Source of the DNA: Linderina pennispora
Lineage: Eukaryota > Kickxellomycota > Kickxellomycetes > Kickxellales > Kickxellaceae
Length of the DNA stretch: 64,000 nt
Assembly: GCF_002104995.1 (NCBI RefSeq)
Contig: NW_024468249.1
Span: 434,001-498,000 of the forward strand
Direction: 5' to 3'
The position numbers and the translations under genes are program-made. Below the pieces are notes generated by a model. The model worked only from the letters and a program-made list of their open reading frames with translations. It had not been told where the DNA came from and made no database searches. Of this stretch, positions 1,834 to 28,256 are shown in pieces (within the stretch, counting starts at the first letter, position 1; every line of letters starts with the position of its first letter).

Positions 1834-3784
1834 TTAGTAGTTGAGCCAGTACTCCGTCGGGAACAGATCGCGCATGGCCTTCCAGTGGGCGATGGCAGAG
1901 CCGACCTGCCACTGAGGCAGCGGGTTCCACTGGTCAGTGATGGGCTTGACATCGTCGGCATACGCCGCATCGATGTTGATCTCCCGCTCCTCCATCTTGG
2001 ACAGCATGTTGGAGCGGATTGTGTATTGGTCCATTGCGCGCAGGACCTTGTGCGAAATGTCAAACTCGAGCGGGCTGTTTGATGCAAAGAACATCATGTT
2101 GGTCAGCCCATCCATATCATCCAATGACTCAGCAAAGCAGCGGACATGCGAGAACACAGTCGAGATAGTGCGAGCGACATGGTAAAGGGAGCGCGTGTCG
2201 GACATGATGCCGACGTAGTTCATGGCCAGGGTGCCATTGGGCTTGAGGATGCGCTCGAGCTGAGCAATAGGCCGATTCGGAGAACAACGAGCTGGGGACA
2301 GAGCCGCCGGTGAACACGTCATGCACAATGTAGTCGTATGTGTGGTCGGGCGACTCGTCAATGAAGGTGCGGCCGTCTTGCAGGTACACGCCATTGAGGT
2401 TCTTTGGCAGCATAAAATAGTCGACTGCAGCCTTGTAGACTTCGGGGTCGATCTCGACAACGTCCACACGCACATTCTGCTCGTGCAGCGAACGTGCTGA
2501 CACGCCAATGCCGAGGCCGATCTGCAGGGCGCGCTCCAGAGCCATCGCCGATCAGCGACTTTTTTGTGACCATCATGCCCTTGGACTTGGACGCCGGGTG
2601 GTGCTTGTTGTCCTTGATCAGACGCACAGGCGTCCGGGTAATAGAACACGCCAAAGATGGACTCGTTGGTCGTGTTCCACTGGCCGCCGAGAATGGAATG
2701 GCCACTGCGGAGCAGGCGTATTCCTCGCTGAGCCTCGTCAGATACAGAGACCCAGCCGGTGATAGACTCATGCCGCGACAGCATGTGATACTGTGTCGTG
2801 TTGCGGTTGTTGGCAGCTGTCAGGCCGTTGGTGCAAGAGGGCTGCGAGAAGAACGTGGTTAGGGCAAAGAACAGCACGCCTCCAGCCGGCAGGAATTGCA
2901 GTTTGCGGATCTGCCTATCGCGCAGGTTTGCGGTCAGCTCCTCGGCGCCCTTCTCGAGCTTGCCATCCGGCGATGCAGCCTTGAGTGCCTCGAGGGCATC
3001 TGCAGAATCAACAGTCTCCTGGTAGCCAGTCAGCAGCTTGATGATAACACTGCTGAGCCCAGCGAAGATGGCGTTGAAAAGAATGCCAGTGCAGGCAACC
3101 TGGGGGCGGGCAAATGTGTGGCCAAGCCAGACTGACATGGCGACAGCACTTAGGTACGCGATGGAGATTGCGCCCTGCAGGATCTTTGACTGCGGGTTGT
3201 ACGAGACGCGCGCCGCGCTGAGCACTGCGACGAACCCGCCCAGCACAAACGCCGGGAACGTGAACAGGCAGTAGACAATCATGGGGCCCCACATCGGGCT
3301 CACCATATCGGAGTAACGGAACAGGTACGAGGCGCGTGTCGGCGCCAGAGCAGTCAGAATTGCTGCCATGTCGAATGCCATGGCGATGGCACGAGTGGTC
3401 TTGGTGTCAATGGTCAGTTGGTCGCCCTTGCGCTTTTTGACGGGCGACATAGCCGACAGGATATAGCGCCAGTAGCTGGACCCCATCAGCCCGCCTAAAA
3501 TGAAACTGAACAGGATGCCGTAAAAGTAGTTGAGGTACGGCAGCACGTTGCCGAACACGGGCTCGAGGTACTGCGGGCCCAGACGGATCAGCGACGAGGA
3601 CAGGATGTTTGTCGACATAAAGCCGATGAATATCGAGATGACTGTGGGCAGCGACGGACCAGCCGGGGCTGTAGTGCGTGGGCCAAGCACCTTGTAGGCA
3701 GCATCGAGCACGGGTTTGCTGTCTGTGAGCTGCGGAGAGTCGTCGCCCTTTCGTCTGCTTCTTGCGTCTAGTCGTCGACGACAT
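1834..3784 (-). CDS. Multispanning membrane protein with C-terminal spermidine-synthase-like domain
   Basis: The N-terminal part carries several hydrophobic segments (for example around FIGFMSTNILSSSLI and IVYCLFTFPAFVLGGFVAVL). The C-terminal part is a Rossmann domain of the spermidine/spermine synthase family: glycine loop LQIGLGIGVSARSL, acidic strand VVEIDPEVYKAAVDYF, then DGRTF and the HDVFTGG catalytic-loop motif. Family members bind decarboxylated or ordinary S-adenosylmethionine; whether this one makes a polyamine is unknown. The start is taken at 3784 (MSSTTRRKK), because the longest frame (from 3711) lacks the basic N-terminus. Four +1 frame changes are needed, near 3745, 2630, 2550 and 2280. 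The Rossmann motifs continue across them, which suggests sequence errors rather than a dead gene. Confidence 0.75.
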
Positions 3785-23777: not shown

Positions 23778-25733
23778 ATGGACTCGCGCAAGGAGGAGCT
23801 CGAGAAGAAGCGCGCCAAGCTCGGCTGAACTGCGGCGCCAGCGTGAAGAGCGCAAGCGTGCAGCACTCCAGAGCCAGCAGCAGTCTACTGTATGTAGCCA
23901 AATGAACAGCTGAACGCTAGATTGCACTGTTTTTACTGACGATGCAGGTGCATTTCCTCCCACTTAGGCCTCCTCGAGCAGGTTGGACACAAACGACATT
24001 AACGATTTGGTGAATTCACTGGTTGGTGACCGGGCGCGTTCGCCTAGCATCACGCATCCACGACGCCGAGCCGCTGTCGCCTGTAGCATCGTCGTTTTCA
24101 GCACATGTGCGGGCGGCGGCCAGCGCACCGCGGTCAGATACGCCCGACAGCATGTCAACAGGAGCGATGTCACCGCGGCCAGTAGCACAGCAACGGCTGG
24201 TTCCCGAGTTCACCACAACCGAGACCGTGATTTTTGACTTTGCACCCAAGGAGAAGGTGGCATACAACAAGGAGACACAGACCAGCGAGGCAGTGGCCGA
24301 GGACACTGGACTAATTGCCGAGGAGGAGGTTGAGCGGCGTGTTCGCTGAGATCCGCGAAAAGGACGAGAAGGCGAGGCAGGAGCGCGAAGAGGAGCGCAT
24401 GCGTCGCGAGGCCGAGGCCAAGGCCAAGGAGAACGAGATCCGGCGGCTGACTGAGGAGCAGCGGGCGGGCATCCTGCAGTCAACCGAGTTTGCTGGGTTT
24501 GTTGACACCATGTCGCGTGTCATGGAGCGCGCGCTCGACGAAGACTACGATGTCATGGTGGACTACTCGCTGGCCGACTGTGCCCGAGGATGAGTCGGCT
24601 GCGGAGAAGCTGAAAGCTGGCAATTGCGTTCAGCGACGACCGTGTGTCGCGTGGTCGCTCAGTCATGGACGTTGCCTGGTCGGGCCGCTTTACAGAGCTG
24701 GTAGCTGCCGCCTATAACCGGAACCCAATGGCGCCCAACGAGCCTGACGGTGTGGTGGCGATCTGGAACACGCATCTGAAAGAGCGGCCAGAGTTTGTGT
24801 TCCACGCTCCGTCCGACGTGCTGAAGGTGACCTTCTCGGACTTCAACCCGAATATTATCGTTGGCGGTGCCTACTCGGGCCAGATCCTGCTGTGGGATAC
24901 GCGTGCCAGGTCGCAGCCCGTGCTCAAGACACCGCTGACGTCCGGAGGACATACGCATCCGGTGTATGCCCTGAAGGTAGGTTGGCACCACTAACGCTCA
25001 CCAGCTGATCAGCGCCAGCACTGACGGACTTGTGTGCTCGTGGCAGCTGGATATGCTGGCCCAACCGCAGGAAACCCTGGAGCTGGCGCATCCGGCGCAT
25101 CTGCGCACTGACGAGGTCTCGGTGACATGCTTTGACTTTGCAGACAACGAAACCAGCTGCCTTTGTTGCTGGCACTGCCGAAGGCGTGGCTTACCAGGTC
25201 AACCGCTATGACCGCGCAGGCAGCAAGGCTGGACTTGCTGGCTTTGACGCCTACCGCGCCCATACCGCCCCACTGACATCGCTGTCATTCCATCCCGCCG
25301 ATCGCGTCGGACTTCTCCGATCTATTTCTGACCACATCTGCCGACTGGACCACACGACTGTGGCGCGCACGCCCTGCAGCCAAGCCTGCATCGACTGTGC
25401 CCACTGATATCCGTCCTGTGCATGTCTTTGATGCCTTTGATGACTATGTGTGCGATGCAAAATGGTCGCCGTCGCATCCCAGCTGTGTTTGCGTCATCCG
25501 ACGGTGCTGGCCGCCTGGCGCTGTGGAACCTCAACCGCGATACTGAGCTGCCAGTGCAGACTGTCAATGTGGGCCGTGCCCTGAACCGCCTGGCCTGGGA
25601 TCGCCCGGGCAAGCGTGTGGCTACCGGTGGTGCCGACGGCACAGTGTATGTGTACGATGTTGGAGACCTGGCCACGCCCAAGCCCGATGACAGCGCAAAG
25701 TTCTCCCGCGTCATCAGTAGTCTGTCCAGCTGA
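23778..25733 (+). CDS. Cytoplasmic dynein intermediate chain
   Basis: The dynein intermediate chain links the motor heavy chain, light chains and dynactin. The N-terminal helix begins MDSRKEELEKKRAKL and is followed by a Ser/Pro-rich linker. An LC8-binding TQT motif (NKETQTSE) lies near 24270. A WD40 propeller begins at about 24660 (VMDVAWSGRFTELVAAAYN) and ends LAWDRPGKRVATGGADGTVYVYD. One intron is inferred, 23890-23967. The locus needs at least six +1 corrections (near 23823, 24045, 24340, 24585, 24630, 24975 and further). At 24975 removing one G from GTAGGTTGG restores VVGTTNAHQLIS, a stretch conserved in animal homologues. The gene is probably intact in the organism. Confidence 0.85.
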
Positions 25734-26389
25734 ACCACAATTGGCATTTGCCACCAGCCTACTAACTCGTATCCTTTTACTACTATACAAGATTCTATAG
25801 TCCAAAAATGCCCGACCGTCCGCTAGAACCTTATTAATTGGATTAAAAGTAAAGCTCTTTTAAGCCTTCAAAGCGAGTTCTGGGTGACTTGCTCCTGTAA
25901 GCTCCCTTTTGATCTTGCGCGGCATCTGACCTCATCGGTGAAACCAGGGTGACAAGCTAGTATTGTAGTGGTCACAGGTCTCCACTAGATATCTCCACTG
26001 GTTCAGCGCAAGAGCTGCTCTCATTGTCGGTCGGCCTGATAACTTCCATGGCGTCATCATGGTGGTCATCATCAGCTGCGCAACACTCAGGATATTTATT
26101 TATGAGCACCTATTGAATGAGGCCATGTAACTCTTCTAGCGGTCATGCAATATTTGTGGGTTTATTTTACAAATTAATTTGTCTTATGACCATGCGTAAG
26201 CAGTAGTATTTGGGCCACAATGGACCCAGTCTGTATAGACTGATTCAGGAGACTGTATCAGTGCTAAGGGTCCCAAGAACCATGCAAGCCAAATCATTTT
26301 TAATAAAAAGTTCTTAATGCTATGCATACGCAATAAAGCAAAACTGAACAGCATCATTTCTCTTCTTACTTGCCTACTGAATTTCTCAA
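25734..26389. other. AT-rich flank of the Fanzor locus
   Basis: The DNA becomes visibly AT-richer here than in the preceding gene, consistent with an inserted element. No gene is supported. The string CTAGAACCTTATTAAT at about 25823-25838 partly matches the reverse complement of ATTAATTCTAG at 28204-28214; this is a weak candidate for element ends. Confidence 0.35.
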
Positions 26390-28061
26390 ATGAATATTAC
26401 CCGCAGCACTACTGTCATAAAGATATCATTTGGTGGTATTGGCTTCCGTGATTCTATGTTGCCCCGCCTAGAGCAATTTGTACACAGCGTCAATATCATC
26501 AAAGAGCATACATACATGCTTGCACGATGGATATTACTCCATCAACTAGCAGACGATGATGCCTTTGACCCTGCAATGCTTGTGAAAAAGGGTTTCACTC
26601 GTTCCAATTTATTTATTCATTTACCACAATCTGAAGGCAAATCCACTTACTGCTGCATCGGCAAGCAGCAGCAGACACTGTTGCAGCACTTGACAATGCA
26701 TATGCACCAGCACCCCTAGTCTGTGCACACGACCCGGTCCAAGGGATCATACAAGCTGTGTGAGATGTATGGGCCGGGTCGCAGATCTAACATCAAAGCC
26801 ATTTAAGGCGCATGGTGATAGAAAATTCCACGGAATGGCAACAACAGATGGTATAACGATATGCATTTTGTTACAAGACAAGGTACCTAAGGCTGGTGCT
26901 GCAGGAGGCAATGCTGCGGGAGGCAATGCAGCAGGGGCAATGTTACAGCTGATGCTACAGCCGATGCTGCGGGAGGTGATACTACAGCTGACTGTTGCTC
27001 TATCCACCAGATCCCACAGCCAGAGCTGCAGAATCTGAAAGGCCGCTGTGTATTCATCGATCCAGGTCGGGGCGATTTGCTATACATGATGCACGAAAAT
27101 AGCAGCAATGGGAAAGAGGGTGAAAAATGCTCTACCGCTACACATGGCAGCAGCGCAACAAGGAGCTCAAGCTGCGCCACTATGACAGGATTCGTCGGGG
27201 TACAAAGAATCAAGTCCCAGAAGATGCTGTCCGCAGAGCAGAGGCAGAGCTTTCCAAGCACTGCTGCCGGACCCTTAGCCCAGCAAAATTCCGTGCCTAC
27301 GTTGCTGCCCGTGCATCTGTGCGGTGTGTCCTAGCACCATTTTATGCCAACATGATGACAACACGAAGGTTGCCAGAGCAGCAGCCCACTAAGTCAAACA
27401 AGCAGCACCAGAGGCGCTGGAAGGCCCATCCGGGTGTCGGGACCAGTCCCAAGGTGTACCCGCTTCACCGCAAGCTGCGCCTTGATTCATTCATGAACCA
27501 GGCCCGTGCAGACCACAGGCTTGCCTGCGATACTTCCAGTCCTAGTTCGGTCCAGATCCAGTGCTGATCATGGGCAATTGGAGTGCGCCGATGGCCCGAC
27601 ACCATGCGCCGATTCGTGGCAAGAGATGGCGCGACACGTTCAAGCATCATGGCTTTGAATTCTATCTGATCGACGAATTCCGGACATCGTCGATGTGCCC
27701 GTTCTGCTGCGAAAAGTCGCTGCAGACATTCCGGCATGTTCCCAACCCGCGGCCCTACCAGAGATCGAAGAACCCAACTGTGAAGTGCCATGGTCTTCTC
27801 CGCTGTACAAGCGAGTCATGTAAGCAGGCCATGGCACAATACAGGCGAGCCTATTCGTCTCGGCTCTTGAACCGCGATCTCGCAGCAGTTCTAAACTTCA
27901 GACTCATTTTCCAGTCACTCTGTGATTCAGGCAGTATTCCTGAACGGTTCTGTCGTTCTACGGCCATTGTTGCCGATACTTCCGGCACCACCCCTGCAAC
28001 AAAGAACCCCACGCAAGAGGTGTGCGGCAGCAGCAAACCAGCGCTGAGGTGCCTGCATTGA
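26390..28061 (+). pseudogene. Fanzor-like (eukaryotic TnpB/OMEGA-type) RNA-guided nuclease, frame-broken
   Basis: Fanzors are eukaryotic relatives of transposon TnpB and are RNA-guided DNA nucleases. The N-terminal piece (LEQFVHSVNIIKEHTYMLAR, 26390-26719) has the helical pattern of Fanzor N-termini. The RuvC-I motif FIDPGRGDL (aspartate codon 27059-27061) follows a Gly/Ala/Asn-rich linker. A helical block follows at 27127-27560 (YRYTWQQRNKELKLRHY). The open segment 27561-28061 carries IMGNWSAP, the RuvC-II glutamate in LIDEFRTSSMC (codon 27675-27677), a zinc finger (CPFC with LRCTSESC) and the RuvC-III aspartate in NRDLAAVLNF (codon 27876-27878). All three catalytic acids and four cysteines survive. 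The pieces lie in different frames, needing about five -1 (or +2) corrections, and no single ORF covers the protein. Decay or sequence error cannot be separated here. Confidence 0.75.
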
Positions 28062-28186
28062 GCAGACCAATCAAAATGGGAAATGTCCATGACCACCATT
28101 GCACCAACAACCATCCGACACGTTCAAATGACCGGTTCGCCGTGATGCTCTTATCGACGTGTCAACCCATGCTGACTAGCAGCCGA

Positions 28187-28201
28187 GCTCGCATCGCGAG
28201 C
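28187..28201 (+). other. Perfect hairpin 3' of the Fanzor ORF
   Basis: GCTCGC and GCGAGC flank a 3-nt loop. The hairpin lies about 125 bp after the Fanzor stop and 56 bp before the convergent SmD3 stop. It could belong to a guide (omega) RNA, mark the end of the element or act as a terminator-like structure; the sequence alone does not decide. Confidence 0.35.
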
Positions 28202-28256
28202 AGATTAATTCTAGTACCGAAATGAGTCTTTTTTTAAAAACAACAAACACGAAGAA

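What the first reader, a model, noticed from the sequence alone, without database searches (positions are those of the whole stretch)
26390..28061. Fanzor-type (eukaryotic TnpB/OMEGA) locus between dynein IC and SmD3
All three RuvC acids (FIDPGRGDL, LIDEFRTSS, NRDLAAVLNF) and a CxxC...CxxxxC zinc ribbon are present, together with GNWSAP-like and N-terminal blocks typical of Fanzors. The frames are broken (-1 or +2 between pieces). The locus is AT-richer than the neighbouring genes and sits between two convergent/tandem housekeeping genes. A Fanzor is a eukaryotic RNA-guided nuclease, so a copy in this fungus could still have a guide RNA. A perfect hairpin lies 3' of the ORF (28187-28201).
Basis: partly seen in the sequence, partly recalled or inferred. 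Interest (0 to 1): 0.85.

Follow-up and report, generated by a model that had tools for sequence, protein, structure and literature searches.

The report
Dead copy of Helitron-borne Fanzor family
The locus is a broken copy of a jumping gene that carries a Fanzor RNA-guided DNA cutter, one of a large family in this fungal genome that appears to be moved by rolling-circle (Helitron) transposons and to insert at the kind of short sequence that the closest studied Fanzor must see before it cuts.

Summary
The Fanzor call is right, but the window holds a dead copy. Window 25772-28214 is one element of a large family: the 26.2-Mb genome has 200 matches to its 3' end and at least 150 protein matches; intact copies have ORFs of about 860 aa. 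One of them matches Parasitella Fanzor1 (PpFz1) at E 2e-83. The window copy keeps the RuvC D, E and D and the zinc ribbon, but lacks about 270 residues of the N-terminal half and changes frame repeatedly, so it should not work. The element looks like a canonical non-autonomous Helitron: TC...CTAG ends, a hairpin 12-13 nt from the 3' end, insertion between A and T. The one RepHel Helitron read through its 5' end shares its first ~80 bp with the Fanzor element. In 136 of 138 exact 3' ends the next bases are TA, so the inferred empty site reads A^TA; the published PpFz1 TAM is ATN. Fanzor1 on Helitrons, and the homing idea for them, are in print; canonical ends whose target matches the TAM were not found in the papers seen. 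No RNA or empty-site evidence was obtained.

The parts
25772..28214 (+). Whole element: internally deleted, Fanzor1-carrying, canonical-type Helitron (5' TC ... 3' CTAG), 2443 bp; long relatives 3.3-3.6 kb
   Evidence: blastn to the other copies and comparison of both ends over 39-43 copies
25776..25848 (+). 5' terminal segment shared with the RepHel-coding Helitron L049 (83.8% over 74 bp in this copy; 97-100% over 77-84 bp in the best preserved copies)
25771..25771 (+). Left-flank host base A (first base of the inferred A^TA target)
   Evidence: set by eye in this copy, where the aligned start is off by two bases
26390..28055 (+). Fanzor1 coding remnant in several frames; residues ~1-89 (76-89 weakly, E 0.011) and 361-852 of the 863-aa homologue L016
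   Evidence: tblastn, phmmer against PDB
26641..26642 (+). Junction of an internal deletion of ~820-830 bp that removes most of the N-terminal (REC/WED) half
   Evidence: domain names by alignment to PpFz1, inference
27053..27079 (+). RuvC-I motif FIDPGRGDL (catalytic D)
   Evidence: aligned with PpFz1 DPGR in an intact copy
27666..27692 (+). RuvC-II motif LIDEFRTSS (catalytic E)
   Evidence: alignment
27696..27821 (+). C4 zinc ribbon (TNB domain), CPFC...CTSESC
   Evidence: alignment; PF07282 weak, E 0.0058, below cut-off
27870..27899 (+). RuvC-III motif NRDLAAVLNF (catalytic D)
   Evidence: alignment
28117..28214 (+). Candidate omega-RNA scaffold (98 nt): 7-bp stem 28117-28123/28157-28163, then the terminal hairpin
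   Evidence: less diverse than each of 51 windows of the 5' non-coding part in 17 full-length copies; fold and covariation not decisive; no RNA data
28187..28201 (+). Perfect 6-bp/3-nt hairpin GCTCGC-ATC-GCGAGC, the Helitron-type 3' subterminal hairpin, 13 nt from the end
28211..28214 (+). 3' terminus CTAG (CTRR of canonical Helitrons)
28215..28216 (+). Right-flank TA (rest of the inferred A^TA target)
   Evidence: T in 43 of 43 and A in 42 of 43 copies; TA after 136 of 138 exact 3' ends
28217..28232 (+). Where a guide would start if the TAM is ATN (host DNA beside SmD3); hypothetical
   Evidence: inference from PpFz1 TAM ATN (PMC11423790)

Best explanation
What it is: a dead, internally deleted copy of a non-autonomous canonical (Helitron1-type) Helitron that carries a Fanzor1 gene and, probably, a 3' guide-RNA scaffold; one of about 200 related copies in this fungus. 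How the family most likely works: (1) RepHel made by the sister Helitrons in the genome copies the Fanzor element by rolling circle, between the shared TC end and the hairpin-CTAG end, and inserts it between A and T of an ATA site. (2) Transcription through the 3' end gives an RNA whose scaffold is the last ~98 nt (7-bp stem plus the Helitron hairpin) and whose guide is the host DNA to the right. (3) Fanzor1 with this RNA cuts the same site where the element is absent, because there A and TA are joined into the TAM (ATN/ATA); the occupied site is spared because the insertion splits the TAM. (4) Repair copies the element into the cut chromosome. Step 1 is supported by sequence (ends, target, partner); steps 2-4 are inference from the PpFz1 and SpuFz1 systems. 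Confidence given is for identity plus step 1; for steps 2-4 about 0.45.
For: Fanzor1 identity: (E 2.4e-83 to PpFz1 for an intact copy). Family size. Helitron ends and A|T insertion: against the hallmarks quoted in PMC5148889 (passages). No terminal inverted repeat of 10 bp or more. RepHel partner: at six RepHel places a copy of the 5'-end pattern lies 1.7-1.8 kb upstream on the same strand; L049 shares the first ~80 bp and encodes Rep and PIF1; head-to-tail RepHel-Fanzor loci. Purifying selection on the ORF: dN/dS 0.30 overall, 0.195 over residues 1-300 (6 ORFs). Conserved 3' segment: diversity 0.017 against 0.058 in the 5' non-coding part. The closest solved relative has TAM ATN, and its omega RNA a 7-bp first stem (passages and one section of PMC11423790).
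Against: No empty site was found: two flank searches gave only occupied sites, and a search with 20 joined flanks did not complete. So TA could be the element's own last bases; in two of four head-to-tail loci CTAG is followed by TAC (L037, C157). Left-flank A holds in 19 of 24 ends aligned from their first base, 22 of 39 raw. The hairpin is 12-13 nt from the end, the quoted rule is 10-12. The 3' segment's fold is not unusual (z -1.09), covariation is hardly above shuffles, and the last 13 bp, next to a would-be guide, are variable (0.09). A Helitron 3' end is itself conserved for transposition. 29 of 321 windows, coding ones at the bottom, are even less diverse. RepHel in L049 is split over frames. 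No expression data.
Confidence: 0.8

Rival explanations
1. Fanzor1 is a passenger: the Helitron captured it and its nuclease activity plays no part in spread; the 3' conserved segment is only the Helitron terminator.
For: Deletion derivatives without a usable ORF are common: 41 of 150 protein matches begin at query residue 56-59, where a shared deletion ends. Fold and covariation give no RNA signal.
Against: Intact ORFs show purifying selection (dN/dS 0.30). The conserved segment extends ~70 bp upstream of the hairpin, and by eye the RepHel Helitron's 3' end shares only the hairpin and CTAG with it.
Confidence: 0.25
2. The element is not a Helitron but another Fanzor1 transposon (for instance a TA-target element) that happens to sit beside Helitrons.
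For: The right flank is an almost invariant TA, as in SPu-1, which is flanked by putative TA duplications (PMC3627910).
Against: No terminal inverted repeat of 10 bp or more (25 of 28 pairs shown for L016, 21 of 21 for the window). Of the 19 clean left flanks ending in A, 8 read TA, 7 AA and 4 CA, so TA is not duplicated. Ends are TC...CTAG with the hairpin, and the first ~80 bp match a RepHel element.
Confidence: 0.05
3. The window copy is really intact and only looks broken because of assembly indels.
For: The neighbouring dynein gene also changes frame without clear introns (by eye), so the assembly probably holds some indel errors.
Against: ~820-830 bp of coding DNA are missing, whatever the small indels.
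Confidence: 0.03
4. The short elements work as guide-RNA-only 'ghosts' served in trans by Fanzor from full copies, as proposed for SPu-1 ghost loci.
For: All 20 short copies fetched have the 3' end, though they were picked by a protein match near it; in 11 cleanly aligned ones the 3' segment is somewhat less diverse than the 5' non-coding part (0.053 against 0.079). Ghost loci with an omega RNA are reported in Spizellomyces (PMC10432273, passages).
Against: Keeping both ends is also what any non-autonomous Helitron needs.
Confidence: 0.3

Closest known systems
Parasitella parasitica Fanzor1 (PpFz1, PDB 9cf0-9cf3; PMC11423790, passages and one section read)
   Same: Best match among solved structures, in the N-terminal part, RuvC and TNB; DPG, DEFRTSS and NRD motifs; TAM ATN fits the A^TA insertion site
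   Different: The ~100-aa RuvC insertion of PpFz1 has only ~30 residues opposite it here; this family has Ala/Gly-rich stretches at about residues 311-400 and 443-490 instead; PpFz1's transposon type is not stated in the passages read
CRe-1, -2, -3: Fanzor1 on non-autonomous Helitron2 in Chlamydomonas (Bao and Jurka 2013, PMC3627910, Results read)
   Same: Fanzor1 on a non-autonomous Helitron that shares its ends with RepHel elements; many copies; internal deletions
   Different: There: Helitron2, insertion after TTTT, often with 7-19 bp duplications, genes of 5-10 exons. Here: Helitron1-type TC...CTAG ends, A^T target, no duplication seen, one uninterrupted ORF
SPu-1 / SpuFz1 of Spizellomyces punctatus (PMC10432273, passages; PMC3627910)
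   Same: Fungal Fanzor1 with full, partial and 'ghost' copies (42 Fanzor loci and 134 ghosts); its TAM CATA also covers the insertion site (CA plus TA)
   Different: SPu-1 has inverted repeats and putative TA duplications, and no transposase was found for it
Coemansia sp. RSA 2673 hypothetical protein GGH92_001199 (P0001)
   Same: Only hit in the large protein database (E 1.1e-92, 37% over 50% of the query; 7995 best candidates scored, so not exhaustive)
   Different: Third RuvC residue reads NRN instead of NRD, so it may be inactive

Membership tests
Fanzor1 (OMEGA nuclease) | RuvC D, E and D residues and C4 zinc ribbon before NRD | tested here: met
   Aligned to PpFz1 and SpuFz1; motifs present in the window pieces. 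The shifted-glutamate signature was not examined separately
Fanzor1 (OMEGA nuclease) | Similarity over the N-terminal half too, not only the C-terminal half | tested here: met
   Intact copy L016 residues 7-302 align to PpFz1. Not met by the window copy itself, which lacks residues ~90-360
Fanzor1 (OMEGA nuclease) | Guide RNA transcribed from the 3' end into flanking DNA | not testable with these tools
   Only a conserved 3' segment; fold z -1.09, covariation inconclusive
Canonical Helitron (Helitron1) | 5' TC, 3' CTRR, short hairpin 10-12 nt from the 3' end | tested here: met
   TC start in most copies; CTAG in 35, CTGG in 5, other in 3 of 43; hairpin 12-13 nt from the end, just outside the quoted range
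Canonical Helitron (Helitron1) | Insertion between A and T without duplication | tested here: inconclusive
   Right T in 43 of 43; left A in 19 of 24 clean ends, 22 of 39 raw; no duplication seen. Fits, but no empty site was seen
Canonical Helitron (Helitron1) | RepHel source with matching ends in the genome | tested here: met
   13 PF14214 matches; 5' end shared with L049. 3' ends share the hairpin form and CTAG, read at four loci
Helitron2 | 5' terminal hairpin / asymmetric inverted repeats, target TTTT|T or C | tested here: not met
   Target and ends differ; no repeat of 10 bp or more links the two ends (shorter asymmetric repeats not searched)
Helitron carrying its own transposase (autonomous) | RepHel gene inside the same element | tested here: not met
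   L016 has one long ORF (866 aa, Fanzor) and a 214-aa open frame antisense to it; RepHel DNA lies in a neighbouring unit ending in CTAG at four loci

The most novel reading that the evidence does not exclude
A rolling-circle transposon whose own integration target is its nuclease's TAM: the Helitron inserts into A^TA, thereby splitting an ATN TAM, and its terminator hairpin doubles as the second stem of the guide RNA. Every insertion then makes a guide against its own empty allele, so that Fanzor would turn a Helitron into a homing element. [quoted passage not shown] the shared target/TAM and shared hairpin would be the new part.
Probability: 0.45. Interest if true: 0.75.

Novelty: new variant of a known kind. 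Interest (0 to 1): 0.5.

Why it matters
The biological role of Fanzors is called unknown in PMC10432273 (passages). Here target, terminator and candidate scaffold can be read in the same ~100 bp over some 200 copies beside RepHel genes in one small genome, which makes the homing idea directly testable.

Tried and rejected
Rejected: 'intact gene hidden by sequencing errors' (~830 bp missing); 'another transposon type' (ends shared with RepHel, no inverted repeats); 'the hairpin proves a guide RNA' (it is of Helitron form). The idea that all short copies come from one deletion event was weakened: most of those read share the right breakpoint GCAGCAGACATT or a one-base variant, but on trees they mix with full copies (8 and 7 label changes; shuffles mean 13.8 and 11.4, minimum 8 and 7), so gene conversion or repeated deletion at the same short repeat is possible. 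Rfam: no match above a cut-off, one chance-level hit. Pfam: zinc-ribbon model only, below cut-off. NCBIfam TnpB below cut-off. Folding and covariation gave no decisive RNA signal. Structure prediction was not run. Paper searches: Fanzor (82 papers, 40 listed), Fanzor with Helitron or transposon-associated motif (7 papers), Fanzor with Kickxellomycotina, Linderina or Coemansia (22 papers, 20 listed, none of these holding Fanzor). I saw no report of this family; I read passages or sections of five papers only, and the library is partial.

Full report
Observation. The motifs, zinc ribbon, broken frames and hairpin are at the stated places. The piece 27546-28061 matches PpFz1 at E 2.6e-36 and SpuFz1 at 6.9e-21. 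Neighbours are dynein intermediate chain and SmD3, convergent.

A family, not a single locus. In the window's own genome (26,172,285 bases, 222 contigs) the piece has 258 first-look candidates; 150 were scored and all are listed as matches, and 14 of these lie in frames of 790 aa or more without a stop inside the match. A 37-bp 3'-end pattern with up to 3 mismatches has 200 matches and a 38-bp 5'-end pattern 111, with none for the reversed patterns. I fetched 20 copies with long open frames and 20 of the short group; with the window, L008 and a copy on contig C157 this makes 43. Both ends were located in 39, whose lengths are 1550-3576 bp. Of 20 long copies, 10 have 790 codons or more from the first ATG. 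L016 has a single long ORF of 866 aa and a 214-aa open frame antisense to it.

Fanzor1. The 863-aa product of L016 matches PpFz1 (E 2.4e-83), SpuFz1 (2.9e-33) and GtFz1 (7.9e-6), with the RuvC residues aligned in the first two. Among six intact ORFs dN/dS is 0.30 overall, 0.195 over residues 1-300 and about 0.5 in the low-complexity linker and the C tail, so the protein seems to have been kept by selection in the active lineages. The only hit in the large protein database, where the 7995 candidates sharing most words were scored, is from Coemansia; this suggests a fungus of the Kickxellomycotina. That is inference; no tool names the genome.

The window copy. Against L016 it holds residues 1-89 and 361-852 in changing frames; ~820-830 bp are missing at about 26641. 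The dynein gene beside it also changes frame (by eye), so some indels may be assembly errors, but the missing part is not of that kind.

Transposon type. Over 43 copies the 3' end is hairpin, 12-13 nt, and CTAG in 35, CTGG in 5, other in 3; it is followed by T in 43 of 43 and A in 42 of 43 (terminal types counted by hand). Genome-wide, 138 exact 3' ends were found and 136 are followed by TA. The 5' end starts TC; the base before it is A in 19 of 24 ends that align from their first base (17 of 22 without L025 and L034, which share their site with L021 and L031), and in 22 of 39 raw rows, misaligned ends included. These are the marks of canonical Helitrons as given in PMC5148889 (passages), the hairpin one base further out than quoted in some copies. 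No inverted repeat of 10 bp or more joins the two ends. The genome has 13 RepHel (PF14214) matches at seven or eight places; at six of these a 5'-end pattern lies 1.7-1.8 kb upstream on the same strand. The one I read through its start, L049, shares its first ~80 bp with the Fanzor elements, at 97-100% in the best copies and about 84-95% in many others, and encodes Rep (E 3.3e-49) and PIF1 helicase (1.3e-66), split over frames. In four loci (L012, L018, L037 and C157:9.8-15.6 kb; L037 with a short Fanzor copy) RepHel DNA and a Fanzor element lie head to tail with different right flanks. In L012 the RepHel unit's CTAG is followed by the complete 5' end (CTAG|TC); in the other three the first bases of the Fanzor end are missing or changed. 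Such junctions are what joined circles or tandem insertion could leave (inference; circles and tandem insertions are discussed in PMC5148889).

Target and TAM. Of 20 joined flanks, chosen from the 39, 18 read A-TA, two of them (L038 and the window) with the left end set by eye. PpFz1, the closest solved relative, has the TAM ATN (PMC11423790). If the TAM here is alike, insertion between A and T splits it, and the guide would begin after TA. An IS607 TnpB includes a fixed right-flank base in its scaffold (PMC10711439, passages), and the SpuFz1 TAM CATA likewise covers its insertion site (PMC10432273): precedents, not tests. Limits: no empty site was seen; two searches gave only the occupied copies and the larger one did not complete. 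So TA might be element sequence; L012 (CTAG|TC) speaks against that, L037 and the C157 copy (CTAGTAC) leave it open.

Candidate guide RNA. In 17 full-length copies the 86 bp at element positions 3226-3311 have diversity 0.017, against 0.058 in the 5' non-coding part (51 windows, lowest 0.045) and 0.096 in the C tail. Of 321 windows along the element 29 are lower; the eight lowest, the only ones listed, are coding. The last 13 bp are variable (0.09). In 11 short copies, chosen for clean ends, the segment has 0.053 and the 5' part 0.079. The segment starts at a 7-bp stem, and the first stem of the three solved Fanzor1 RNAs has seven pairs (PMC11423790); it ends in the Helitron hairpin. Stability is not unusual (z -1.09, 146 of 1000 shuffles as stable); 106 of 1000 shuffles hold a 7-bp stem, 18 the hairpin, none both, but this combination was chosen after seeing the sequence. 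On 20 rows, picked from the 43 for their differences, 96.5% of cells pair against 96.1 in shuffles, and 33 to 59 of 500 shuffles reach the covariation score and both-sided changes: no firm support either way.

Short copies. 41 of 150 protein matches start at query residue 56-59 (counted by hand), the end of a shared deletion. Trees do not give one clean clade.

Verdict. A Fanzor1 on a canonical Helitron is a new variant of a known kind; the copy in hand is dead. The bold reading is that Helitron target and Fanzor TAM are one and the same, which makes each insertion self-targeting towards its empty allele. The homing idea for Helitron-borne Fanzors is already in print (PMC10432273).

Noticed in passing
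P0001 (Coemansia sp. RSA 2673, 13 member sequences): The only database hit has NRN where Fanzors have NRD, and FNDMG for FIDPG: perhaps a catalytically dead Fanzor in a related fungus.
   Followed up: partly
L012 near 1849, L018 near 1819, L037 near 1157, C157:9798-15600: RepHel Helitron and Fanzor element lie head to tail at four places with different right flanks; only L012 shows a complete CTAG-TC junction.
   Followed up: partly
L009, L010, L011, L017, L028, L043 left flanks: Runs of TCTTTA/CTTTAT-like repeats precede the 5' end, like repeated copies of the element's own first bases; origin unexplained.
   Followed up: no
L016 protein residues 311-400 and 443-490: Ala-rich and Gly/Asp/Ala-rich stretches coded by repeat-like DNA; the shared deletion of the short copies starts in the first of them.
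   Followed up: partly
window 24614-25733: The dynein intermediate chain gene changes frame repeatedly without evident introns, which points to indel errors in this assembly.
   Followed up: partly
G000:C68:198243-198650: A more distant RepHel match (E 5.8e-24) in a 1989-aa open frame without stops, apparently another Helitron family.
   Followed up: no
L049 4913-6049 and L013 567-1634: An ORF of 379 aa (open at the end, no Pfam match) downstream of RepHel has a 68%-identical stretch in opposite orientation near another Fanzor copy.
   Followed up: no
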